IMG/VR virus record: IMGVR_UViG_3300021959_000330
Coordinates: 1 to 26,109 of that record
From: a virus
Length of the DNA: 26,109 nucleotides
Strand: one strand, 5' to 3'
Every line of letters starts with the position of its first letter. The first letter of the stretch is position 1. Shown here one piece after another: positions 165 through 15,960 of this stretch. The notes under the pieces were generated by a model. The model was given only the letters and a program-made list of their open reading frames with translations, did not search any database and was not told where the DNA came from. The translations under genes and the position numbers were made by a program.

Positions 165-788
165 ATGAGCAACCGCATTTCCAAAGGCCGGTACGGCGAC
201 GACAACGATCCCAAGGTGATTGCGGCAGAATGTCGCAGGCTGGAAGCCAGTGAGGAATTCAACGAGTTGCCTGAGTTTATGTCGCGGCCCGAAGCCTTCA
301 ACAACCCGTCGCAGAAACTTCGCCGGACACAGATGACGGCATTGCCCTTCCGTTTGTCGCCTATGCAGTATAAGTTTGCCTATGAGTTCATCGAGACAGG
401 CGATGCGTACGGTGCATATCTGAAAGCCGGATACGCGGTAGACGGTAAAAAGCCATTTCAGATTCGTGGAAAGGCCAAGGAACTACTTGCACAGCCAAAG
501 GTCAACGCCTTTGTCGAATACATCAGGAAAAAAGCAATGGACAAGCTGGTAATTAACATCGACGACATCGTGGAGAAGTTTCTCACGACGTACAATCAGG
601 CAATGGCCTCGGAAGATTTCACCAATGCCAACCGTGCACTGGAAAATCTGGGTAAACACCTCGGCATGTTCGTCGAGAAGGCCATGATCGAACAGAAGAT
701 AACCATGTCTGCCGATCAACTCGACGCCGAAATAGCCAAGTATCAGGGCATTATCGATGCAGCTATCCAGCAGCCAGTCAAGCACTGA
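165..788 (+). CDS. terS: Terminase small subunit
   Basis: Probable DNA-recognition subunit of the packaging motor; it would bind the phage packaging site and present DNA to the large subunit that follows. The 207-residue protein has a helix-rich core at about residues 60-120 with the pattern typical of the family: an SPMQYKFAYEF helix, then GDAYGAYLKAGY, then a helix ending LLAQPKV and a further helix. This resembles the Terminase_2 N-terminal helix-turn-helix. The C-terminal half (IDDIVEKF, then ANRALENLGKHLGMF) is also typical. I chose the ATG at 165 over the TTG at 114 because 114 overlaps a candidate -10 box and the extra residues are not family-like. No strong ribosome binding site is seen. 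The end overlaps the large-subunit gene by 32 nt. Confidence 0.82.
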   Translation: MSNRISKGRYGDDNDPKVIAAECRRLEASEEFNELPEFMSRPEAFNNPSQKLRRTQMTALPFRLSPMQYKFAYEFIETGDAYGAYLKAGYAVDGKKPFQIRGKAKELLAQPKVNAFVEYIRKKAMDKLVINIDDIVEKFLTTYNQAMASEDFTNANRALENLGKHLGMFVEKAMIEQKITMSADQLDAEIAKYQGIIDAAIQQPVKH

Positions 789-2298
789 CCCACAGGTCCT
801 CCTCGCCCTGATGAAGGCCCGTGCTGCACAGGCGGCACACGACGATTTCGCATCCTACGTCAAGATGATGGCCCCGCTGATTGTCCCAGACTTCAAATGG
901 GGGCGACATATCGACATTATTTGTCGTGAATTGCAGCGTTGTGTCGATCAGGGTGGACAGAGGATCATGGTTTTCCTCCCACCACGGTCGTCCAAGTCCC
1001 TGATCTCCTCCAGATTGTTCCCATCGTGGTACATGGGACGCAATCCTGCCCACGAAATTCTGACAATCAGCCATAATGAGCAGCTATCCTCGGACTTTGG
1101 CCGGTCTGTCCGCGATCTGGTAGCAACTGGGGAGTTCGAGGAGGTATTCGACGGGGTCCGGCTACGGAAAGACGCCAAGGCTGCGGGTAAATGGAAGACT
1201 AACAAGGGCGGATCGTACTTCTCGGCTGGTGTTAAGTCCCAGATTGCCGGTCGCGGTGCCCATGTTGCCATCATCGACGATGCCATGTCTGAAGAGGACG
1301 CCTTCTCCGACGCCGGTCGTGAATACATCAAGAACTGGTACCCGTCAGGCCTCCGAACCCGTCTGATGCCCGGCGGTTCCATCGTTATCATCAACACCCG
1401 TTACCACGACGACGACCTCTGCGGGTGGCTGCTGCGAAATCAGGGCAACGAGGAGGTAGAGACACAGCCATGGAAGGTCATCAAGATACCTGCATGGGTC
1501 GATGACGAGGCGTCTGACCTTCTCGGACTACCAGTCGGCTCATCGTACTTCCCCGAGTGGAAGACAGATGAACTGCTACGTCAGGACGAGGCAGAAATCA
1601 GGTCGAACAACGGTGCCAAGTACTGGCAGTCGCTCTACATGCAGAACCCGACGCCCGACGACGGCGGTATCATCAAGATGGGCTACCTCCAGCCGTGGAA
1701 GGACAGCGATCCACCTGCCTGTGAGTTTGTCGTCCAGACACTCGACACCGCCTTCAGCACCAGACAGACTGCCGACGAATCGGTAATCCAGACATGGGGC
1801 ATATTTCATCAAGCCCAGACCGACTCGGCAGGACTAGAACATATTGTCGCCAACATAATCCTGCTCGGCAACGAACACGGGCGGTGGGAGTATCCCGAAC
1901 TACGTGCCCTTGCACAGGAGGAGTACGACCACCACAGACCTGATCTGATGATTGTCGAGAAGAAGGCATCGGGTCAATCGCTGATCCAAGACCTGCGTCG
2001 TGCCGGTCTGCCAATCATGGAATACAACCCTGACCGCGACAAAGTATCTCGTGTCAATGCAGTCACCCCGCTAATGGAGTCTGGACGAGTCTGGATACCG
2101 GCAGATCGACAGTGGGCAGACGATCTACTCAATCAGGCACTACGGTTCCCCGGCGGTAAGCACGACGACATGGTAGACGCCATGGCAATGGCAGTACTGT
2201 ACATGAAGGATTCATGGCGAATCGAACACCCCGACGATCCGGAGTGGGAAGACGACCAGCCTCGAAAGAAACGCGGCGGTTATTGGGTACTGCCCTGA
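757..2298 (+). CDS. terL: Terminase large subunit, packaging ATPase and nuclease
   Basis: Motor protein that drives DNA into the prohead and cuts the concatemer. The 513-residue length is normal for the family. The ATPase domain shows a Walker A-like LPPRSSKS at residues 74-81, a Walker B-like VAIIDDAM at 170-177 and a coupling motif IINTRYHDDD at 211-220. The C-terminal RNase H-like nuclease shows three acidic clusters: TLDTAF (D330), IVEKKASG (E401) and KHDDMVDA (D470, D471, D474). The ATG at 757 lies inside the small-subunit gene in another frame. A second ATG at 811 would remove 18 poorly conserved residues and cannot be excluded. Every expected catalytic element is present, so it should be active. 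Confidence 0.95.
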   Translation: MQLSSSQSSTDPQVLLALMKARAAQAAHDDFASYVKMMAPLIVPDFKWGRHIDIICRELQRCVDQGGQRIMVFLPPRSSKSLISSRLFPSWYMGRNPAHEILTISHNEQLSSDFGRSVRDLVATGEFEEVFDGVRLRKDAKAAGKWKTNKGGSYFSAGVKSQIAGRGAHVAIIDDAMSEEDAFSDAGREYIKNWYPSGLRTRLMPGGSIVIINTRYHDDDLCGWLLRNQGNEEVETQPWKVIKIPAWVDDEASDLLGLPVGSSYFPEWKTDELLRQDEAEIRSNNGAKYWQSLYMQNPTPDDGGIIKMGYLQPWKDSDPPACEFVVQTLDTAFSTRQTADESVIQTWGIFHQAQTDSAGLEHIVANIILLGNEHGRWEYPELRALAQEEYDHHRPDLMIVEKKASGQSLIQDLRRAGLPIMEYNPDRDKVSRVNAVTPLMESGRVWIPADRQWADDLLNQALRFPGGKHDDMVDAMAMAVLYMKDSWRIEHPDDPEWEDDQPRKKRGGYWVLP

Positions 2299-2582: not shown

Positions 2583-5009
2583 ATGTCACTCGTTGAAAAC
2601 TACGGACCTATGCTGCCGGAAGCAGAACTCGAAGAAGGCCTCCCCGAGTTCGAGATGGAACTGGAAGACATCATGGTGGAGGGTGGGGACCTTTCAGGTC
2701 TGTCGCCCGACGACATGGCGTTCATGGCGTCCATGCAGGAAGAAGTTGCAGTAGAAATTGAAATCCCGCACTTCGCCAACCTTGCCGAGTATCTTGGCGA
2801 CGACGAGTTGTCGGACATTGCAGAACGTGTCATCGAAGGATTCGAGGCCGACAAGGACAGCCGCTCCGAATGGGACGAGACACTGACCCGTGGCCTCGAT
2901 CTGCTCGGCCTGAAGTTCGAGGAGACCGGCACGGCATTCGATGGATCGTGTGCAGCAACACACCCGCTGATCATCGAGTCAGCAGTAAAGTTCCAATCCA
3001 AGGCGTCTCAGGAGATTCTTCCCGCCAACGGTCCTGTCCGCACACAGATCATCGGTGATCCTGACAGTCAGATCGTCCAGCAGTCCAACCGTGTCCGCCG
3101 GTTTATGAACTATGAACTGACCGAGATGATGCCCGAGTACTTCGACGAGATGGAGCGGATGCTGTTCCATCTCCCCATTGTCGGCTCTGCAATCGTCAAA
3201 ATGTACTACGACGGCGGTCTGGAACGACCGACTGCCGAACACATCCCGATTGATCAGTTCTATGTCAACTACTCGGCAACTGACCTACGTCGTGCCGACC
3301 GGTACACCCACATCATCTACAAGTCCCCGGTCGATATCCGCCGAGACATGGCAGCAGGGATGTACCGTGATGTCGAAGACCTGTCAGACAGTCCGGACAG
3401 TGGCAGATCAGACAATGAGATTTCGTCCAAGATTGACGAGATCATGGGACTCAGCGGTAACAACTCCGAAGACCCAGAGTACACCCTTCTCGAACAGCAT
3501 GTCTATCTCGAACTCGAAGACGACGACATGCCGTATCCCTACATCGTGACAGTCGAGGAGTCCTCGCGTCAGGTCCTCTCTCTCCGTCGCAACTACCGTG
3601 AAGACGACCCCCGCGCCGAGAAGATGATCCACTTCACCCACTATCGGTTTGTCCCCGGCTTTGGCTTCTACGGTCTCGGCCTGATCCACCTGATCGGTAA
3701 CCTGACCATGACGGCAACGTCAGCCATGAGGGCACTGGTCGATGCCGGTCAGTTCGCCAACCTTCCCGGCGGCTTCAAGGCGAAGGGTGTCCGGGTTGTC
3801 GGCGACAACGACCCGATCAGCCCCGGTGAGTTCAAGGAAGTAGAGGCACTCGGCATGGACCTGAACAAGGCCATCGTCAACCTGCCCTACAAAGAACCGT
3901 CCCAGACACTCTTCCAGCTGCTCGGCTTTGTCTCCGGGGCAGCAGAAAAGTTTGCCGATCAGACCGATCAGGTCGTCAACGATTCCTCCGGATACGGTCC
4001 TGTCGGGACAACCATGGCCCTGATCGAGGCCTCTGCCAAGTTCTTCTCGGCAGTCCACAAGCGTCTCCACCACGCCCAGCGTCAGCAGTTCAAGATTCTG
4101 GCCCAGATCAATGAGACGTTTGTCCCTGTCAACGGCTACCCGTACGCCACACCGGAAGGTGACATGACCATCTTCCAGCAGGATTTTGATGGTCGTGTTG
4201 ACGTTCTCCCCGTCTCGGACCCGAACATCCCGAGCCGTGCTCACCGCCTGTCCTTGGCAAGTCTGGCTCTCCAGTTGGCAGCACAGACGCCTCCGGGGAC
4301 ATTCAACAACACCGAACTGATCCGTCAGGTCCTTGAGGCAGCAGACTTCCCGAACATTGATCAGGTCATCCCGGCCAAGCAGGAAGCCCAACCGGCAGAC
4401 CCGGTGACCGACATCATGAATGCCACAAAGGGAATGCCCATTGCTGCCTTCCCCGGTCAAGATCATGAGTCACACATTCAGGTCAAGACCAACTTCCTGT
4501 CCGACCCGACCGCAGGTGCGTCTGAGGCCTTCAAACAGTTTGCCCCGGTCATTCAGGCCAACATTCAGGAACATATGATGCTCCGGTACAAGACACAGAT
4601 CGAGGGCGTCGTCGCCCAGACAGTACCGCCCGAGCAATATCAGATGGCCGTACAGCAGGGAATGCAGGACGCAATCATTGCAGAGGCTGCTGCCCGAGTT
4701 GCCACGGCGAACCAGCAGATTGCCAGTGGGGGTAGCCCCGAGGAACGGCTGGTCCAGATTGATCAGGAGCGTCTCCGCCTTGATCAGGAAAAACTTCAGC
4801 TGGATGCCATCAAGGATGCGGCCAACATTGCAACCAAGAATCGTCAGCTGGACCTGAAGGAAGACCAGCAGCGCATGGCCGCACTGAAGGACGGTCTCAA
4901 GCTAATGTCGGACAAGGAGGAGGCAGAACTTGACCGTGAAGAAAGTCGTCGTGAGATGCTTATTGATCTTCTTGCTGATGCTGCCAAGTCAGAGGCCGCT
5001 GGTGGCTGA
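2583..5009 (+). CDS. Portal protein (P22-type, long)
   Basis: Dodecameric ring at the unique capsid vertex through which DNA enters and leaves; it docks the terminase and later the tail accessory factor. At 808 residues it is somewhat longer than P22 gp1 (725). The N-terminal 60 residues are very acidic. The core holds typical portal stretches, such as FDGSCAATHPLIIESAVKF, the IVGSAIVKMYYD region and PIDQFYVNYSATDLRRADR. The later helix-rich part (residues about 370-500) contains LIHLIGNLTMTATSAMRALVDAG and a VGTTMALIEASAKFFSAVHKR helix. The last 120 residues are a Gln/Glu/Lys-rich coiled coil, as in the P22 barrel. Its position directly after terminase fits. Its last 80 nt are also read in another frame by the hydrolase gene if that gene starts at 4930. 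Confidence 0.9.
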   Translation: MSLVENYGPMLPEAELEEGLPEFEMELEDIMVEGGDLSGLSPDDMAFMASMQEEVAVEIEIPHFANLAEYLGDDELSDIAERVIEGFEADKDSRSEWDETLTRGLDLLGLKFEETGTAFDGSCAATHPLIIESAVKFQSKASQEILPANGPVRTQIIGDPDSQIVQQSNRVRRFMNYELTEMMPEYFDEMERMLFHLPIVGSAIVKMYYDGGLERPTAEHIPIDQFYVNYSATDLRRADRYTHIIYKSPVDIRRDMAAGMYRDVEDLSDSPDSGRSDNEISSKIDEIMGLSGNNSEDPEYTLLEQHVYLELEDDDMPYPYIVTVEESSRQVLSLRRNYREDDPRAEKMIHFTHYRFVPGFGFYGLGLIHLIGNLTMTATSAMRALVDAGQFANLPGGFKAKGVRVVGDNDPISPGEFKEVEALGMDLNKAIVNLPYKEPSQTLFQLLGFVSGAAEKFADQTDQVVNDSSGYGPVGTTMALIEASAKFFSAVHKRLHHAQRQQFKILAQINETFVPVNGYPYATPEGDMTIFQQDFDGRVDVLPVSDPNIPSRAHRLSLASLALQLAAQTPPGTFNNTELIRQVLEAADFPNIDQVIPAKQEAQPADPVTDIMNATKGMPIAAFPGQDHESHIQVKTNFLSDPTAGASEAFKQFAPVIQANIQEHMMLRYKTQIEGVVAQTVPPEQYQMAVQQGMQDAIIAEAAARVATANQQIASGGSPEERLVQIDQERLRLDQEKLQLDAIKDAANIATKNRQLDLKEDQQRMAALKDGLKLMSDKEEAELDREESRREMLIDLLADAAKSEAAGG

Positions 5010-5607
5010 TAGCAACAAGATTCGACAGCTTCTATCCAAAAGCGGCTTCGGTGACGCAGCCACTGCTGGAATTATGGGTAACATTGACGTTGAAACCGGC
5101 GGTTCTTTCGACCCCCGACAGAAACAGTATTCTGGTGGACCGGGACGTGGACTGTTTCAGATGGAGTCCGGTGCAGGAAAACTAGACGAATATCAGACAT
5201 GGCTTAAAAATACAGGTCGTCAGGACAGCGATGCCAGTCAGATTCAGTTTTTTCGTGACACCATCTACGATCCGTCCGGAGTCCGGGACATTGTCGGAGT
5301 AGACGTAGTCGGATTTGGTAACGCCGAGAAACTTCGGAATGTGCTTGAAACCGATGATCCTGCAAAAATTGCCGAAGCCGTTTCCAATCTATGGGAAAGG
5401 CCGAGTGTTCCACATATGGAACGACGAAAAGAAGCCGCTGCTAAATATATGGAGGCAGAGCCGGAAGATACTACAAGTTTACTGTCCCGCCTTAACGAGT
5501 CTATTCGCGGTCTATTGGATAGAGGTGGGGATAGTCGTAAACTAGCCCCAGAAGATCAAGCACAATTTTCAGACCTGATGAGCCGTCTGTCACAGCAAGG
5601 AAAGTAA
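4930..5607 (+). CDS. Peptidoglycan hydrolase (phage tail lysozyme-like) with optional signal peptide
   Basis: Probable cell-wall hydrolase. The core matches the phage tail lysozyme family: GIMGNIDVETGG with a likely catalytic Glu at residue 55 (numbered from 4930), then GRGLFQ at 72-77 and a later NLWERPSVPHMERR stretch. Two starts compete. TTG at 4930 has a strong AAGGAGG at 4914-4920 and gives 225 residues beginning with a Sec signal-like peptide (KK and R, then CLLIFLLML, then LVA-DS). GTG at 5002 overlaps the portal stop and gives a 201-residue protein starting MADSNKIRQLL, with no signal. The first would be exported as an endolysin; the second would suit a virion-associated enzyme used at entry. 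The coordinates given are the long form. The C-terminal 45 residues are acidic and helical. Confidence 0.8.
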   Translation: MTVKKVVVRCLLIFLLMLPSQRPLVADSNKIRQLLSKSGFGDAATAGIMGNIDVETGGSFDPRQKQYSGGPGRGLFQMESGAGKLDEYQTWLKNTGRQDSDASQIQFFRDTIYDPSGVRDIVGVDVVGFGNAEKLRNVLETDDPAKIAEAVSNLWERPSVPHMERRKEAAAKYMEAEPEDTTSLLSRLNESIRGLLDRGGDSRKLAPEDQAQFSDLMSRLSQQGK

Positions 5608-7658: not shown

Positions 7659-7847
7659 ATGTATTTCGAAGACATCAAGAAACAAATAGAAGCCCAGATT
7701 ACGGAGTACGAAAAACTCCTTGGGTCCAATGGCGCAGAGGACTATTCTGCCTATCGTCAATACGTCGGCACTATTTCAGGACTGAAGTGGTGTCGGGATT
7801 TGGTCGCACAAATCCAGAAACGTACAGCGGAAGGAGAAGACGACTAA
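7659..7847 (+). CDS. Small helical protein of unknown function
   Basis: A 62-residue, helix-only protein: MYFEDIKKQIEAQITEYEKLL, a short AEDYSAYRQYVG segment, then LKWCRDLVAQIQKRTAEGEDD. It looks like a helical hairpin. Similar short proteins with a YxxYRxxVGxIxGL-type centre occur in other podovirus-like phages beside head genes, as far as I recall, without known function. CGGAGAA at 7649-7655 precedes the ATG. Its stop overlaps the co-chaperonin start (TAATG), and its 3' end carries the AAGGAG used by that gene. Confidence 0.7.
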   Translation: MYFEDIKKQIEAQITEYEKLLGSNGAEDYSAYRQYVGTISGLKWCRDLVAQIQKRTAEGEDD

Positions 7848-8266
7848 TGGTCATGGAACCAAAAATGGCAGGTGCCATCAGTAATGCCGACTGGGCACAG
7901 GACGAAGACATTGCGGACCCGTCCCCGCTCCCCACAATCCCCGGATACCGACTCCTCATCAGGCCTCTGAAAGTTCAGGGCAGGACGAAGGGTTCTATCA
8001 TACTCCCCGATGCGTTCAAGGACGACATCAACTACCTGACCACCGTTGGCCGTGTACTGGCCGTTGGTGATCTTGCCTACCGGGACGACGAAAAGTTCCC
8101 GCTCGGCCCGTGGTGTCAGGTAGGAGACATTGTCTGCTACGGGAAGATGAACGGGAACAAACTTCGATATAAGGGCGTAAACCTTATCATGCTTTACGAT
8201 GACCAGATCATCATGAAGATTGAAGACCCCTCGGATGTTGATCCGATGTTTAACATCGCCTCATAG
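7847..8266 (+). CDS. GroES-like co-chaperonin
   Basis: A 139-residue relative of GroES/Cpn10, which caps the GroEL folding chamber. The barrel spans about residues 31-126. IPGYRLLIRPL matches the first strand. GSIILPDAFKDD (49-60) matches the mobile loop, with IIL at the GroEL-contacting hydrophobic triplet. VGRVLAVG (67-74) and VGDIVCYGKMNGNKLRYKG (92-110) match later strands, and LIMLYDDQIIMKI the last. It is longer than bacterial GroES (about 97) through a 30-residue acidic N-terminal extension, a DDEKFPLGPW insertion and a C-terminal tail. I chose the ATG at 7847 because AAGGAG at 7831-7836 sits 10 nt upstream. Directly upstream of scaffold and capsid genes, it probably helps host GroEL fold capsid protein, as T4 gp31 does. 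Confidence 0.88.
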   Translation: MVMEPKMAGAISNADWAQDEDIADPSPLPTIPGYRLLIRPLKVQGRTKGSIILPDAFKDDINYLTTVGRVLAVGDLAYRDDEKFPLGPWCQVGDIVCYGKMNGNKLRYKGVNLIMLYDDQIIMKIEDPSDVDPMFNIAS

Positions 8267-8290
8267 GCGTAAACTATGGAGGAATCGGTC

Positions 8291-9304
8291 ATGGCCGATG
8301 ATGACTGGAATGAAATTGATGTTGAATCCGCACAAGACGGTGACGACAAAGTAGAGTACGAAGTTGAAGAGGAAGCAACAGCTACAGAAGAGAAAGCTGA
8401 ACCTGTCAATGAGTCTGAAGATGATACAGCTTTCGTCGAGGTGGACGAGTCGGCCCCCGATCCTGATCCTGTCGAAGCTGCTCCGGAACTTGAAGGTGTT
8501 GACACCGACGGGGCACAGAAACGAATCCGACAGCTAGTCCGGCAGCGGAAGGAACGCGAAGAGCAGATCATTGCCCAGCAGCAGGAACTGGCCGCACTAC
8601 AGGCCCGACTGCAAGATACGGAGCAGAAGAATGCCGAAGTCTTTAAGAAAAACTATGACGTCACTGAACGACAGCTTCAGGAAAAGTCTGAGATGGCCCG
8701 TCAGGCATATCTCCGGGCTTACGATGACGGCGACAAAGAAGCTATGTTGGCCGCTCAAGAAGCTATGTTCGATGCCAAGCAGAATATCAGCTTGGTCCGG
8801 CAGGGTCGTCAAGACGTTGAGAAATATTCTACCGACCTTGTAAAACAGGCCGAGGCCTATAATAATCAAGTAGCGGCACAGCAGCAGCAACCGGCATACG
8901 ATCCGAAGGCTGTTGAATGGGCTGAACAGAATACGTGGTTCGGTCAGGATCAGGTAGCAACGGCGGCAGCACTTGCCATTGACGCCAACCTCAAGAACGA
9001 GGGCTACGATCCGACATCGGACGATTTCTATCAGGAAGTTGATAAGCGACTACGTGCTGAACTTCCTAACAAGTTCGGGGCTGCTCCTGCCTCGTCACCC
9101 AAGGAGCAAGTGGTAGGGGGACAGTCGCGTAAGTCTCCCGATTCTACCGGCGGCAAGAAAGGTAATCGTAAGGTCAAGCTGACCCGTGACGATATCGAAC
9201 TTGCCAAGAAGTGGAACATCCCACTTGAGCGGTACGCCAAAGAAAAGGCGAAGGCCGAAAAAGCGACGGCGGTGGGCGACTATACGTCCATCAATGTTGG
9301 TTAA
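8291..9304 (+). CDS. Capsid scaffolding protein
   Basis: A 337-residue protein with the usual scaffold layout: an extremely acidic first 75 residues, a coiled coil rich in Gln, Arg and Glu (about 80-130, with KRIRQLVRQRKEREEQI and QQQELAALQARL), further helices, and a basic C-terminal segment (KGNRKVKLTRDDIELAKKW). Basic ends of scaffolds commonly bind the coat protein. It guides assembly of the prohead and leaves before or during packaging. I chose ATG 8291 (MADDDWNE) over ATG 8276 because GGAGG at 8278-8282 lies 8 nt upstream of the second. It lies two genes and about 1.1 kb before the capsid gene, as expected. Confidence 0.85.
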   Translation: MADDDWNEIDVESAQDGDDKVEYEVEEEATATEEKAEPVNESEDDTAFVEVDESAPDPDPVEAAPELEGVDTDGAQKRIRQLVRQRKEREEQIIAQQQELAALQARLQDTEQKNAEVFKKNYDVTERQLQEKSEMARQAYLRAYDDGDKEAMLAAQEAMFDAKQNISLVRQGRQDVEKYSTDLVKQAEAYNNQVAAQQQQPAYDPKAVEWAEQNTWFGQDQVATAAALAIDANLKNEGYDPTSDDFYQEVDKRLRAELPNKFGAAPASSPKEQVVGGQSRKSPDSTGGKKGNRKVKLTRDDIELAKKWNIPLERYAKEKAKAEKATAVGDYTSINVG

Positions 9305-9322: not shown

Positions 9323-9817
9323 ATGAGTGAAAGTAAAACACGTACGAGTCGAGTTGATGGTGGTCGCAAGACCGAAGAACGATTTGATGATGAGTTCACC
9401 GAACCTAATTGGTTGTCAATTCCCGATTCTGTAATTGACCGGTTCAAAGATCAAGGCCTAGTACTTCGCTGGGTCCGTATTATGATCAACGGACAGGATG
9501 ATTATAAGAACGTAGGCGACCGACAGAACGATGGGTGGTCCTTTGTCGAACCGAACGATGTACCAGAAATGATGGCTAATTCTCGTGTCGTGGACGAGGG
9601 CCGATTTGAAGGTTGTGTCGTCCGTGGTGACGTTGCTCTCGCAAAGGCTTCTGCAAAGCGTATGCAAAGCAGACAAGAGTTTTACGAGAACCGATCTCGG
9701 ACAATGATGGATAACGTAAATGCTCAGTTGATGCGTCAGTCAAACTCAGCAATGCCGATTCATAACACCTCCAAATCATCTGTAACTAAGGGAAGGACGC
9801 CTTCCTTTAATGATTAA
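9323..9817 (+). CDS. Conserved phage protein between scaffold and capsid genes
   Basis: A 164-residue protein with a central segment LRWVRIMINGQDDYKNVGDR, then GWSFVEPNDVP, a GRFEGCVVRGDVALAKA strand-rich part and a helical, Arg-rich C-terminus with many Asn, Ser and Met. I recall similar proteins at this place in other podovirus-like phages, called only hypothetical or structural. Its place between scaffold and the head proteins suggests a part in prohead assembly. CGGAGGA at 9307-9313 precedes the ATG. Its last codons encode a strong hairpin (see 9788-9808). Confidence 0.7.
   Translation: MSESKTRTSRVDGGRKTEERFDDEFTEPNWLSIPDSVIDRFKDQGLVLRWVRIMINGQDDYKNVGDRQNDGWSFVEPNDVPEMMANSRVVDEGRFEGCVVRGDVALAKASAKRMQSRQEFYENRSRTMMDNVNAQLMRQSNSAMPIHNTSKSSVTKGRTPSFND
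9788..9808 (+). promoter_or_regulatory. Hairpin just upstream of the head-protein genes
   Basis: AAGGGAAGG at 9788-9796 pairs with CCTTCCTTT at 9800-9808 (one G-U pair) around the three-base loop ACG. It lies in the last codons of the preceding gene, 8 nt before the ribosome binding site AAGGAG (9816-9821) of the next. No long U run follows, so it is more likely an RNA-processing, stabilising or partly terminating structure than a full terminator. Confidence 0.4.
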
Positions 9818-9828
9818 GGAGTAACATT

Positions 9829-10407
9829 ATGGCTTTGTCGAAAGCACTTAATGGCTTCGTCCCCTCGCGTCGTCGTGGGTCTGGTGCGAACAGCACCGGT
9901 TCCAGCCGTTATCGTGTTGCCAACGCCTTTGGCAGCAACATTTTCTACGGTGACCTCGTTAAGTTGGACGGTGGCTTTATTGAACCGATTACCTCTGCTG
10001 GTAGCTACAGCACGGGTGCCTTTCAGGGTTGTGAGTACATTGACCCTGTAACGAAGCAGCCCACCTTCTCGAACTACTATCCGAGTGGTGTCTCTTCGGC
10101 TGTTGGTAACGTGACGGCGTTTGTCGTTGACGATCCGGCAGCTACCTACATTGTTCAGGCCGACGCCTCCGTGTCCGTTGGCGACATCAACCTGAACTTT
10201 GACGTGACGCTTGGTGCGGGTTCTGCCGTGACCGGTATTTCCGGCTTCGGTATTATCGCAACCAGCCGTCAGGAAACCACTGGCATGGTGCGTGTCCTCG
10301 ACATCTACAACGAGCCGGGTAACGCCTTCTCGGATGCAAATCCGAAGGTTGAAGTCCGTATCGTTCAGCATGTTGATGCCGATGTATCATCGCATGATGA
10401 AGACTAA
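9829..10407 (+). CDS. Probable head decoration or auxiliary capsid protein
   Basis: A 192-residue protein, mostly beta in prediction. It starts with a basic arm (FVPSRRRGSGANS), followed by YRVANAFGSNIFYGDLVKL and GAFQGCEYIDPVTKQPTFSNYYP. Its small glycine- and alanine-rich strands include GDINLNFDVTLGAGSAVTGISG. The VxxGDxVxL-type strand and the place immediately before the major capsid gene suit a decoration protein or a capsid-stabilising protein. I cannot assign a named family with certainty. AAGGAG at 9816-9821 gives strong initiation, so the protein is likely abundant. The C-terminus is acidic (HVDADVSSHDED). Confidence 0.7.
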   Translation: MALSKALNGFVPSRRRGSGANSTGSSRYRVANAFGSNIFYGDLVKLDGGFIEPITSAGSYSTGAFQGCEYIDPVTKQPTFSNYYPSGVSSAVGNVTAFVVDDPAATYIVQADASVSVGDINLNFDVTLGAGSAVTGISGFGIIATSRQETTGMVRVLDIYNEPGNAFSDANPKVEVRIVQHVDADVSSHDED

Positions 10408-10422
10408 GGGGAGTAATTAACA

Positions 10423-11343
10423 ATGGCTATTAACCGCAGTAATATCGCAAAGGAACTGCTCCCCGGCCTCAACGCTGTCTTCGGTGTTGAGTATGGTGAT
10501 GTAAACGACGAGCATGTTCCTCTGTTCGACGTCGAGAACTCAGACCGCAGCTTTGAAGAGGAAGTTCTCTTCACCGGCTTCGGCTCGGCTCCGACCAAGA
10601 CCGAAGGTTCGGCTGTTCAGTTTGACACTGCACAGGAATCGTACACCGCACGTTACAACCACGAGACTGTCGCTCTCGCCTTCTCAGTCACTGAAGAAGC
10701 GATGGAAGACAATCTGTACGACACCTTCTCGAAGGTTCGTGCCCGTGGTCTGGCCCGTGCGATGGCGAACACCAAGCAGGTGAAAGCTGCCGACATCTTC
10801 AACAACGGCTTCGCGGCTGGTGACTATGCCATCGGTGACGGTCAGGCGTTCTTCAGCGCCGATCATCCGACCATCGGTGACGGTACCCAGTCTAACCTTG
10901 CCGCTGCTTCGGACCTGTCCGAGGCTGCTCTTGAGACCATTCTTACGAACATCCAGCTTATCAAGGATGATCGTGGTATTCTGATCGGCGCGGGTGCGAC
11001 GTCTCTGCACATCCCCCCGGCCCTCCAGTTCACCGCTGAGAAGATTCTCATGTCGCCGGGTTCGACGAACGGCACGAATAACTATGCCAAGAACGACATC
11101 AACGCCATTCGTGCGATGGGTGCTGTTCCGGGCGGTTACTTCGTCAACCGTCGTTTCACCGACACGAACGGCTATTTCATCAAGACTGATGTTCCGAACG
11201 GTGCGAAAATGTTCAACCGTACGCCGCTTCAGACGAAGATGGAAGAAGACTTTGACACGGGTAACCTCCGGTTCAAGGCTCGGGAGCGTTATAGCTTCGG
11301 TGTCTCTGACTGGCGCGGTTACTTCGGCTCTGCCGGTAGCTAA
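10423..11343 (+). CDS. Major capsid protein (Mu gpT-like, HK97 fold)
   Basis: A 306-residue coat protein. The segment FSADHPTIGDGTQSNL, the following LSEAALETILTNIQLIKDDRG helix and the IPPALQFTAEKILMSPGSTNGTNN region match the Mu gpT-like capsid family as I know it. The start, with an acidic EDGDVND-type turn and FSVTEEAMEDNLYDTFSKVRARGLARAMANTKQ helix, fits the spine helix of the HK97 fold. No inserted I-domain like that of P22 coat is apparent, so the P22-like tail genes are combined with a different capsid lineage. GGGGAG at 10409-10414 gives strong initiation. The gene is followed by a terminator, consistent with the highest expression level in the operon. Confidence 0.87.
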   Translation: MAINRSNIAKELLPGLNAVFGVEYGDVNDEHVPLFDVENSDRSFEEEVLFTGFGSAPTKTEGSAVQFDTAQESYTARYNHETVALAFSVTEEAMEDNLYDTFSKVRARGLARAMANTKQVKAADIFNNGFAAGDYAIGDGQAFFSADHPTIGDGTQSNLAAASDLSEAALETILTNIQLIKDDRGILIGAGATSLHIPPALQFTAEKILMSPGSTNGTNNYAKNDINAIRAMGAVPGGYFVNRRFTDTNGYFIKTDVPNGAKMFNRTPLQTKMEEDFDTGNLRFKARERYSFGVSDWRGYFGSAGS

Positions 11344-13830: not shown

Positions 13831-14374
13831 TTACATTAACGACCTTCGTCGCTGGACTACTGAAGTCCTTTCGAAACCATCTGAGCAGCTTGGAGGAATG
13901 CCTCCGTGTCCGTTCGCAGCGGACGCTTGGGAGGCTGGACTTGTTGCTGTCGGTCTTTGCGATGGTTTGGACGATGTTACTGACGCTCTTGATTTTTATC
14001 CCGCTAGTCGTCGTGACGTATTTATCTGTGTCCTTCCTGATGTTGAAGGACTTACTTCTGAAGAACTGGCCCGTTATGTGGAAGACAAGAACAAAGGTCT
14101 GGTGGCAGAAGATATGTGGCTCATGGCGTACCATCCAGATGACGATCCGAACGAATACGGACTAGACTATCTGGACGCCGACTGGGAGCCTATTGTTGAA
14201 GAAGACTACGCCATGATCTTTGTTCAGCAACTTTCGAAGTTGACTGCTGCATCCTATAATTTGGCGGAGCAGGGCTACTACGACGAATGCCCATGGAAGA
14301 CGTACCGCGATCTCGTCCATCGTCGAACTGAGAAGGCGATTCAGCATGGCAAGTTCAGGCCAGACGACATTTGA
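13805..14374 (+). CDS. Possible DUF1415-like protein
   Basis: A 189-residue protein that is not obviously structural. Residues near the start hold a helix (VSDYINDLRRWTTEVL) followed by GGMPPCPFA. Then come a strand pair with RRDVFICVLPDVEGL, a helix (SEELARYVEDKNKGL) and MWLMAYHPDDDP. The order of CPFA, a hydrophobic strand ending in P, and a strand ending in HPD resembles the DUF1415 family, whose function is unknown; this is a remote resemblance from memory. I chose GTG 13805 because GGAGG at 13792-13796 lies 8 nt upstream; GTG 13790 would add five residues. It overlaps the tail accessory gene by 29 nt. The acidic C-terminal half is helical. Confidence 0.6.
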   Translation: MQRVRPVSDYINDLRRWTTEVLSKPSEQLGGMPPCPFAADAWEAGLVAVGLCDGLDDVTDALDFYPASRRDVFICVLPDVEGLTSEELARYVEDKNKGLVAEDMWLMAYHPDDDPNEYGLDYLDADWEPIVEEDYAMIFVQQLSKLTAASYNLAEQGYYDECPWKTYRDLVHRRTEKAIQHGKFRPDDI

Positions 14375-15017
14375 TCTTGCAATAGACGACGTAATCGAAC
14401 AGGCCTTCGAGCAGATCGGGGGTCAGCCGATTAGTGGTGAGGAGGCCCGGTCGGCGCGTATTGCACTGAACCTGCTGCTTACCGAGTGGCAGAACCGTGG
14501 TGTCCTGCTCTGGAAGCTGGTCGATACTCCGGTTACCGTTACCACATCCACGACATCCTACACGCTCGACTCAGACATTATCGACAGTCTCCAGACCACG
14601 ATCAACGTGAACAGCAACGATCTGGAGATGAACCGGATTACTTATCAGGACTACATGAAACTGCCTGACAAGTCACAGACCGGACGGCCCACACAGTTCT
14701 CCTTTCTCCGTGGCAAGGACAACGTCAGCATGTACGTCTGGCCGACACCTGATCAGACCTACACAATGAACCTGTTTGCCATGACTCGTGTGCAGGACGT
14801 AACAGCATCGGCCATTCAGACCGGCGATGTCCCGTTCCGATTCCTCCCGGCATTGGTAGACGGTCTGGCCTATAAGATGGGGATGCGTCGCCCCGGCATA
14901 GACCCGTCGAAGATCAGCTTTCTGAAGCAGCAGTACGAGGAGACCTTTGCCTTTGCTCTTGAGGAGGATCGGCAGCGGACGTCCATGTTTATCCGTCCAA
15001 GACTGGGATACCTCTGA
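14346..15017 (+). CDS. Head-tail adaptor, P22 gp4-like tail accessory factor
   Basis: A 223-residue helical protein that would extend the portal and receive the tail hub. Typical family features are the N-terminal VIEQAFEQIGGQPISGEEARSAR helices, LLTEWQNRGVLLWKL, the TTSYTLDSDIID strand and the MNRITYQDYMKLPDKSQTGRPT region. The end has DVPFRFLPALVDGLAYKMGMRRPG and a final QQYEETFAFALEEDRQRT helix. These match P22 gp4-like proteins of podoviruses. AGAAGG at 14331-14336 lies 9 nt before the ATG. It starts inside the preceding gene and its stop overlaps the next start. Confidence 0.85.
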   Translation: MASSGQTTFDLAIDDVIEQAFEQIGGQPISGEEARSARIALNLLLTEWQNRGVLLWKLVDTPVTVTTSTTSYTLDSDIIDSLQTTINVNSNDLEMNRITYQDYMKLPDKSQTGRPTQFSFLRGKDNVSMYVWPTPDQTYTMNLFAMTRVQDVTASAIQTGDVPFRFLPALVDGLAYKMGMRRPGIDPSKISFLKQQYEETFAFALEEDRQRTSMFIRPRLGYL

Positions 15018-15304
15018 TGGCAACGGGTCGTCGATCAAATGCTATCTGTGACCGGTGCGGATTCCGGTGCAAGTACATTGAACTTCGCAATGAGGTAGAA
15101 GTAGGCGTCTGGGTCTGTCCGGAATGTTTTGACGGCTCGTATAACAGGGTGAACCATCCGCAGAACATGACGAACGTAGACACAACAGATGATCCCAGTC
15201 TCGACCATCCACGTCCCGACACGACTGCTGACACATCTGCAACTGACGGAAGCTGGACACCAGACGATAGTTCACCCGCATATCATAATGGACAGGCAAA
15301 CTAA
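15017..15304 (+). CDS. Zinc-ribbon protein with acidic disordered tail
   Basis: A 95-residue protein. Cys11-x2-Cys14 in AICDRCGFRC and Cys34-x2-Cys37 in VCPECFDG form a classic zinc ribbon, with an extra Cys18. HPQN follows the second knuckle. The remaining 45 residues are rich in Asp, Thr, Ser and Pro and should be disordered. This small protein is common between adaptor and tail genes in related phages, as I recall, with unknown role; it may be a structural cap or a binding partner of the adaptor proteins on either side. It starts in the TGATG of the upstream gene and ends in TAATG. Confidence 0.75.
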   Translation: MATGRRSNAICDRCGFRCKYIELRNEVEVGVWVCPECFDGSYNRVNHPQNMTNVDTTDDPSLDHPRPDTTADTSATDGSWTPDDSSPAYHNGQAN

Positions 15305-15960
15305 TGGCACTATCCTATTCACAACTACGGACCAACATTATTGAGTCCACCGAGAATGACGGCACGGAGTTTGCCGGTCAGATCGACCAGTTCATTGCAC
15401 GGGCCGAGGCACGGCTGACCATTGACATCGACGATGCCGGTCTGACTCAGCATCAGTATTCGCAGCTTGTTGCATCCGACCCGTTCCTCGGATTGCCGAC
15501 CGGATTTACCATCGTCGAGTCTGCCAACATAACGGCCAACGGGACACGAATTAATCTGCTAAACAGGAACGTGGACTTTATCGCAGACTACTGGCCTGTC
15601 CGTACATCCACCGGTACGCCGAAGTATTACGGACTCTGGGACGACAATACGATCATTGTGGCACCGACACCCGTCTCTGCATTTAACATTGAACTTGCTT
15701 TTGTCGCTGAACCAACGGCCATAACATCGGCCAATCCAACAAACTATTACACGGCAGAGACACCCAATGCCCTGTTCTACGCCTGTATGGTCGAGGCAGA
15801 GTTGTTCAACAAGAACTACGAAGTTGTTAAACTTTGGACCGAACTTTACACTAAGGAAATTGAATTGCTCCGCAATCGTGCCCGTCGTGCCCGTCGTGAC
15901 GATCTGGAGCCGCACAACCAACAGGCCAATAACGCCAATACACTTACCGGAGGCCCATAA
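15304..15960 (+). CDS. Second adaptor-like protein
   Basis: A 218-residue protein with an N-terminal helical bundle (LRTNIIESTEN, then FAGQIDQFIARAEARLTIDID), a VDFIADYWPVR strand, and a segment TPKYYGLWDDNTIIVAPTP with ALFYACMVEAELF. A long basic C-terminal helix (ELLRNRARRARRDD) follows. This is the pattern of the phage adaptor family at podovirus neck positions (DUF6682-like, from memory). It would join the neck under the gp4-like protein. It ends with a GGAGG ribosome binding site for the next gene. Confidence 0.72.
   Translation: MALSYSQLRTNIIESTENDGTEFAGQIDQFIARAEARLTIDIDDAGLTQHQYSQLVASDPFLGLPTGFTIVESANITANGTRINLLNRNVDFIADYWPVRTSTGTPKYYGLWDDNTIIVAPTPVSAFNIELAFVAEPTAITSANPTNYYTAETPNALFYACMVEAELFNKNYEVVKLWTELYTKEIELLRNRARRARRDDLEPHNQQANNANTLTGGP

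What the first reader, a model, noticed from the sequence alone, without database searches (positions are those of the whole stretch)
7847..8266. Phage-encoded GroES-like co-chaperonin next to scaffold and capsid genes
The sequence shows a full GroES barrel with the IIL hydrophobic triplet in the mobile loop, plus a 30-residue acidic N-terminal extension and an inserted DDEKFPLGPW segment. T4 gp31 is the known precedent for a phage co-chaperonin needed for capsid folding. Here the gene immediately precedes scaffold and capsid genes and shares an overlap with the small gene before it, which suggests a dedicated capsid-folding module. The extension is not found in bacterial GroES and may add specificity.
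Basis: partly seen in the sequence, partly recalled or inferred. Interest (0 to 1): 0.6.

Follow-up and report, generated by a model that had tools for sequence, protein, structure and literature searches.

The report
Phage GroES lid beside capsid genes
An aquatic phage fragment carries its own GroES-type chaperonin lid just before its scaffold-like and capsid genes; the gene is genuine but already known as a core gene of related phages, and the new point is that it almost always travels with this capsid gene, which suggests it helps fold capsid proteins using the host's GroEL.

Summary
The ORF at 7847-8266 (139 aa) is a genuine Cpn10/GroES protein: over the Pfam cut-off, a PHROG 'co-chaperonin GroES' hit, and a predicted GroES fold with a canonical mobile loop. 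It is under strong purifying selection. The order portal / small genes / GroES / scaffold-like / two small genes / major capsid protein (MCP) is real.

DDEKFPLGPW is not an insertion; it occupies the ordinary GroES roof-hairpin position (net +1 residue). The real insertion is 4 residues in the mobile-loop arm. The N-terminal extension is real but shared, in variable form, by relatives; it is predicted disordered and only mildly acidic.

It is not new as a kind: GroES is a published core gene of HTVC023P-type pelagiphages and is annotated in other phages with the same gene order. What I add is a co-occurrence test: 81 of 82 loci with a related MCP and at least 5 kb upstream carry GroES about 2 kb before it, and the one miss adjoins an assembly gap. 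No GroEL was found in 21 phage records. Best reading: a dedicated late-operon co-chaperonin that caps host GroEL, most likely to fold capsid-module proteins. GroEL binding and substrate identity are inferred.

The parts
7847..8266 (+). GroES/Cpn10 co-chaperonin gene, 139 aa
   Evidence: Pfam PF00166 35.9 bits (cut-off 21.1), PHROG 3188 1.1e-12, model matches GroES at Z up to 9.7; dN/dS about 0.09 against L014
7847..7930 (+). N-terminal extension (residues 1-28), low-confidence or disordered in the model
   Evidence: pLDDT about 40-53 for residues 1-20; extra length relative to cellular GroES
7985..8044 (+). mobile loop (about residues 47-66): TKGSIIL tripeptide plus the +4 residue arm
   Evidence: alignments; lower pLDDT of about 61-64 for residues 41-60
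8069..8119 (+). roof-hairpin segment DLAYRDDEKFPLGPWCQ (residues 75-91), the claimed 'insertion'
   Evidence: aligns without an insertion to PDB GroES chains; G-[PA]-W-C motif in most relatives
7659..7847 (+). conserved small gene, 62 aa, function unknown, overlapping the GroES start by 1 base
   Evidence: related small ORF directly upstream of GroES in 312 of 353 loci; no Pfam or PHROG match
8276..9304 (+). 342-aa coiled-coil-like, scaffold-like protein (positional assignment)
   Evidence: PHROG 28737, unknown function, 5e-31
9323..9817 (+). 164-aa conserved module protein
   Evidence: PHROG 36003, unknown function; size and position conserved
9829..10407 (+). 192-aa conserved module protein, possibly decoration
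   Evidence: PHROG 37556, unknown function; position conserved
10423..11343 (+). major capsid protein, 306 aa, 33.2 kDa
   Evidence: Pfam Phage_capsid_4 and Mu-like gpT, PHROG 371 major head protein; 54-55% identical to HTVC023P, HTVC027P and DSL-LC04 MCP
2583..5009 (+). portal protein, 808 aa
   Evidence: PHROG 1216, 3e-32
757..2298 (+). terminase large subunit
   Evidence: PHROG 38, 2e-103

Best explanation
This is a phage-encoded GroES (Cpn10) co-chaperonin, expressed with the head-morphogenesis genes. It most likely assembles into a heptameric lid, binds host GroEL through the mobile-loop tripeptide IIL, and closes the folding chamber over phage head-module clients, most plausibly the major capsid protein or scaffold-like protein. 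Shown here: family, fold, mobile-loop and roof sequence, purifying selection, gene order, near-invariant co-occurrence with this MCP, and no detectable GroEL in related phage records. Inferred: heptamer, GroEL binding, client identity and timing of expression.
For: Pfam, PHROG and NCBIfam matches. PDB sequence matches are almost all GroES/Cpn10/Cpn20/Cpn23. The model matches GroES at Z 8-9.7 over about 90 residues, and T4 gp31 at Z 7.2-7.6. Mobile loop T-x-G-G-[IVL]-x-[L/I/K] predominates among the representatives. dN/dS about 0.07-0.1. MCP-anchored loci with at least 5 kb upstream: GroES present in 27/27 viral and 54/55 genome contigs, median 2.07-2.11 kb before the MCP; the one miss, L371, has an N run and bacterial genes directly upstream. 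GroES-anchored loci with at least 3.5 kb downstream: MCP present in 110/111. Same order in phages of Pelagibacter, Roseobacter, Caulobacter, Alcaligenes and Planktothrix. No Cpn60 in 21 phage records. Host genomes carrying the module mostly have their own groES as well, so the phage copy is an extra, specialised one.
Against: Conserved gene order also arises from shared descent of a late operon and does not prove a physical or folding link. The scans kept only the 80 best loci, so co-occurrence is sampled from MCPs at roughly 39% identity or more in the genome set and 54% or more in the viral set. The MCP is 33 kDa and would fit an ordinary GroEL-GroES cage, so the gp31 size argument does not apply. 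A few relatives have a degenerate mobile loop (L086, L428), hinting that GroEL binding may not be universal. No biochemical test was possible.
Confidence: 0.65

Rival explanations
1. The protein is a true GroES that simply supplements host co-chaperonin during infection and helps many phage proteins; its place before the capsid genes reflects late co-expression, not a dedicated client.
For: Canonical loop and roof segment make it a general GroES. The MCP is small enough for the normal cage. GroES genes of other phages sit near tail, early or terminase genes, without this capsid family beside them.
Against: Near-invariant coupling to one MCP lineage across widely different hosts while hosts already have groES.
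Confidence: 0.27
2. The GroES fold has been re-used as a structural or assembly protein of the head (for example at the portal or capsid) and no longer works with GroEL.
For: Position between portal and scaffold-like gene. Altered mobile loops in some branches such as L086 and L428.
Against: In the window and most relatives the GroEL-binding tripeptide context is retained, which a structural role alone would not require.
Confidence: 0.07
3. Not a functional gene or a chance ORF.
For: None found.
Against: Family hits, fold, dN/dS about 0.09 and conservation in hundreds of loci.
Confidence: 0.01

Closest known systems
GroES of HTVC023P-type pelagiphages (HTVC023P gp36, HTVC027P gp55)
   Same: Same family, N-terminal extension, gene order GroES / scaffold-like / two small genes / capsid, and a small gene overlapping the GroES start. 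38% identity over 143 aligned positions to HTVC023P. GroES is one of 13 core genes of that phage type (PMC9599517).
   Different: The window's protein is only 33-38% identical, has a different N-terminal extension, and belongs to a separate supported subgroup. Host of the window unknown.
GroES of Roseobacter phages CRP-901/902, phage DSL-LC04, Planktothrix phage Pag-Yong1, Alcaligenes phage QDWS535 and Caulobacter phage RW
   Same: GroES upstream of the same MCP family.
   Different: About 30-42% identity where detected by tblastn; the extension is variable or absent, and QDWS535 has an altered mobile loop.
Bacterial GroES (E. coli GroS)
   Same: Barrel, mobile-loop tripeptide, roof segment.
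   Different: Window protein has about 26 more N-terminal residues, +4 residues in the mobile-loop arm, a C-terminal tail and a GPWC motif.
T4 gp31
   Same: Phage co-chaperonin fold (Z 7.2-7.6); longer mobile loop.
   Different: gp31 lacks the roof (PMC6318259), has no detectable sequence similarity to this protein, and lies outside the head cluster in T4.
Viral chaperonins of virioplankton (Marine et al. 2017, ISME J; cited in PMC7185714)
   Same: Several uncultured-virus GroES entries are the closest viral structures, the best at 60% identity. That these entries come from this study is my recollection, not checked.
   Different: The paper itself was not readable here, so its coverage of this synteny is unchecked.

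Membership tests
Cpn10/GroES family (PF00166) | Score over the curated Pfam cut-off | tested here: met
   35.9 bits against 21.1
Cpn10/GroES family (PF00166) | GroES beta-barrel fold | tested here: met
   AF2 model, barrel pLDDT mostly above 90, Z 9.7 to GroES 8wuc
Cpn10/GroES family (PF00166) | Mobile loop with hydrophobic GroEL-binding tripeptide | tested here: met
   I51-I52-L53 aligned to I25-V26-L27; conserved in relatives
Cpn10/GroES family (PF00166) | Roof hairpin segment | tested here: met
   17 against 16 residues between AVG and VGD; no insertion in PDB alignments. Sequence-level test only: the model's secondary structure shows no strand there
Cpn10/GroES family (PF00166) | Heptameric ring and ATP-dependent GroEL binding | not testable with these tools
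   Needs biochemistry
NCBIfam GroES equivalog models | Score over curated cut-off of a bacterial GroES model | tested here: not met
   Best 41.2 bits against 128: homologous but not a standard bacterial GroES
T4 gp31 family | Sequence similarity to gp31 | tested here: not met
   BLASTP best E 0.10 over 7 residues
T4 gp31 family | Missing roof loops | tested here: not met
   Roof segment present; gp31 lacks it (PMC6318259)
T4 gp31 family | Longer mobile loop | tested here: met
   +4 residues against E. coli GroES; gp31 has 22 against 16
HTVC023P-type phage GroES/MCP module | GroES followed by scaffold-like gene, two small genes and a Mu gpT-like MCP | tested here: met
HTVC023P-type phages (as genomes) | PolA at least 45% similar and whole-genome grouping | not tested
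   No polymerase gene was looked for; the window is a 26-kb packaging, head and tail fragment

The most novel reading that the evidence does not exclude
This capsid lineage depends on its own dedicated co-chaperonin: GroES, the preceding ~64-aa protein and the MCP form an inseparable head-folding module kept across phages of very different bacteria, and perhaps of archaea. The longer mobile-loop arm, the disordered N-terminal extension and the ~64-aa partner would adapt host GroEL to capsid-module clients.
Probability: 0.35. Interest if true: 0.55.

Novelty: new member of a known kind. Interest (0 to 1): 0.3.

Why it matters
Phage co-chaperonins are usually discussed through T4 gp31. Here a GroES-type lid is a near-obligate companion of a capsid lineage that is abundant in aquatic viromes and also found in prophages of cultured bacteria (for example Gluconacetobacter, Phenylobacterium and Sphingobium). 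That makes the question of why some phages bring their own GroES directly testable in cultured systems, where the host already has groES and the capsid protein is too small to need an enlarged cage.

Tried and rejected
Insertion claim for DDEKFPLGPW: rejected by alignment. Phage-encoded GroEL partner: none found by Cpn60 HMM in 21 records, some of them fragments. Tree of GroES: only 121 columns; module sequences need 4 label changes and gp31, L089 and L090 are long branches, so I do not claim a single origin or the placement of gp31; the window's own subgroup is supported (99/96). A structural RNA at the small-gene/GroES junction: folding z -1.35, no Rfam match in the window. Promoter and terminator scans: counts close to shuffles. 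A mixed MAFFT alignment misregistered E. coli GroES around the mobile loop, so length counts rest. Two host GroES start sites (L403, L404) were misassigned by my script and are ignored.

Full report
Observation. The ORF at 7847-8266 encodes 139 aa. It hits Pfam Cpn10 over the curated cut-off (35.9 against 21.1 bits), PHROG 3188 co-chaperonin GroES (1.1e-12), and GroES chains in the PDB by sequence. Its score to NCBIfam bacterial GroES models is far below their cut-offs, so it is a divergent homologue. The ATG overlaps the stop codon of the preceding 62-aa gene by one base (TAATG) with AGGAG upstream.

Anatomy. Lined up with E. coli GroES, TKGSIIL falls on SAGGIVL, so IIL is at the GroEL-binding tripeptide position. 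Between the tripeptide and the next strand the window has 4 more residues; the same 4-residue gap appears against PDB chains. Between AVG and VGD it has 17 residues against 16 in E. coli, so DDEKFPLGPW is the usual roof-hairpin segment and not an insertion. The first 28 residues are extra (6 acidic, 1 basic) and the first 20 have low model confidence. Relatives share a variable extension; a conserved G-[PA]-W-C motif at the end of the roof segment marks most of the phage family.

Fold. AlphaFold2 on a 122-sequence alignment gave mean pLDDT 79, with most of the barrel above 90 and the N-terminus and mobile loop low. Foldseek and VIA-align match GroES (Z up to 9.7) and gp31 (Z 7.2-7.6). The closest viral model is an uncultured-virus GroES at 60% identity.

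Selection. Against L014 (85% identical protein) dN/dS is about 0.09 overall and about 0.07 in the barrel.

Context. The window encodes TerS, TerL, portal, lysozyme, GroES, a 342-aa scaffold-like protein, two small module proteins, MCP, SU10-like adaptors and tail-fibre-like proteins. The same order around GroES is seen in HTVC023P, HTVC027P, CRP-901/902, DSL-LC04, 023Pt_psg01, Caulobacter phage RW, Pag-Yong1, QDWS535 and Manatee Spring phages. Virus vir526, labelled Methanomicrobiales, has a GroES upstream of TerL instead.

Co-occurrence test. I searched for the MCP in viral and genome contigs and looked for GroES with an HMM. With at least 5 kb upstream, 27/27 viral and 54/55 genome contigs have GroES, a median of 2.07 and 2.11 kb before the MCP. 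The one miss, L371, has a run of N and bacterial genes directly upstream. In the other direction 110/111 GroES loci with at least 3.5 kb downstream have the MCP. By contrast, the six other phage GroES genes that I looked at lie in other settings: beside tail genes, among early or unassigned genes, or before a terminase. The counts are of the best-scoring loci and include relatives, so they are not independent trials. MAG labels of phage contigs are not host evidence.

Partner. No Cpn60 was found in 21 related phage records. Most of the fourteen genomes carrying the module also have a strong cellular-type GroES. So the phage protein should act on host GroEL, as a second lid. This step is inference.

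What is known. Phages that encode only GroES and use host GroEL are established (T4 gp31; PMC6318259, PMC7185714). GroES is listed among 13 core genes of HTVC023P-type phages (PMC9599517) and is drawn in Roseobacter CRP-901-type genomes (PMC10149686). The T4 explanation, an enlarged cage for 56-kDa gp23 (PMC6318259), does not carry over: this MCP is 33 kDa and the roof segment is present. The longer loop arm goes in the gp31 direction but its effect is unknown.

Verdict. A real, ordinary-in-kind phage GroES in a published type of phage module. The added value is the near-invariant coupling with one MCP lineage and the conserved small gene in front. That supports, without proving, a dedicated capsid-module folding role.

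Noticed in passing
7659-7847: The 62-aa gene before GroES belongs to an unannotated family (roughly Y[RK]xxxGxIxGL) found directly upstream of GroES in 312 of 353 loci, often overlapping its start; no Pfam or PHROG match.
   Followed up: partly
7780-7900: DNA identity to L014 and L018 peaks at about 95% across the end of the small gene and start of GroES, against roughly 70-85% nearby, and dS in the first 28 GroES codons is low (0.24 against 1.45). Could be a translation or regulatory constraint, or recombination.
   Followed up: partly
L090 100-456: Virus vir526, labelled as infecting Methanomicrobiales, carries a divergent GroES upstream of its terminase together with the related MCP; whether its host has a GroEL was not checked.
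   Followed up: no
L086 3531-3872; L428: GroES of Alcaligenes phage QDWS535 and of a Gluconacetobacter prophage have altered mobile loops, so some branches may bind GroEL differently or not at all.
   Followed up: no
L397 and G014 (Gluconacetobacter diazotrophicus): This genome has two phage-type GroES copies about 83 kb apart besides two cellular-type ones, suggesting two module-bearing prophages.
   Followed up: no
14346-15017 and 15304-15960: Two nearby genes both match the SU10 adaptor family, which suggests a duplicated head-tail adaptor.
   Followed up: no
4930-5607: Phage tail lysozyme-type gene directly after the portal gene (Pfam Phage_lysozyme2, 1e-18), with a mechanical TTG start that overlaps the portal end.
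   Followed up: no
L371: Genome contig CP070693 joins bacterial genes to a phage fragment across N runs; probably a chimeric scaffold.
   Followed up: yes
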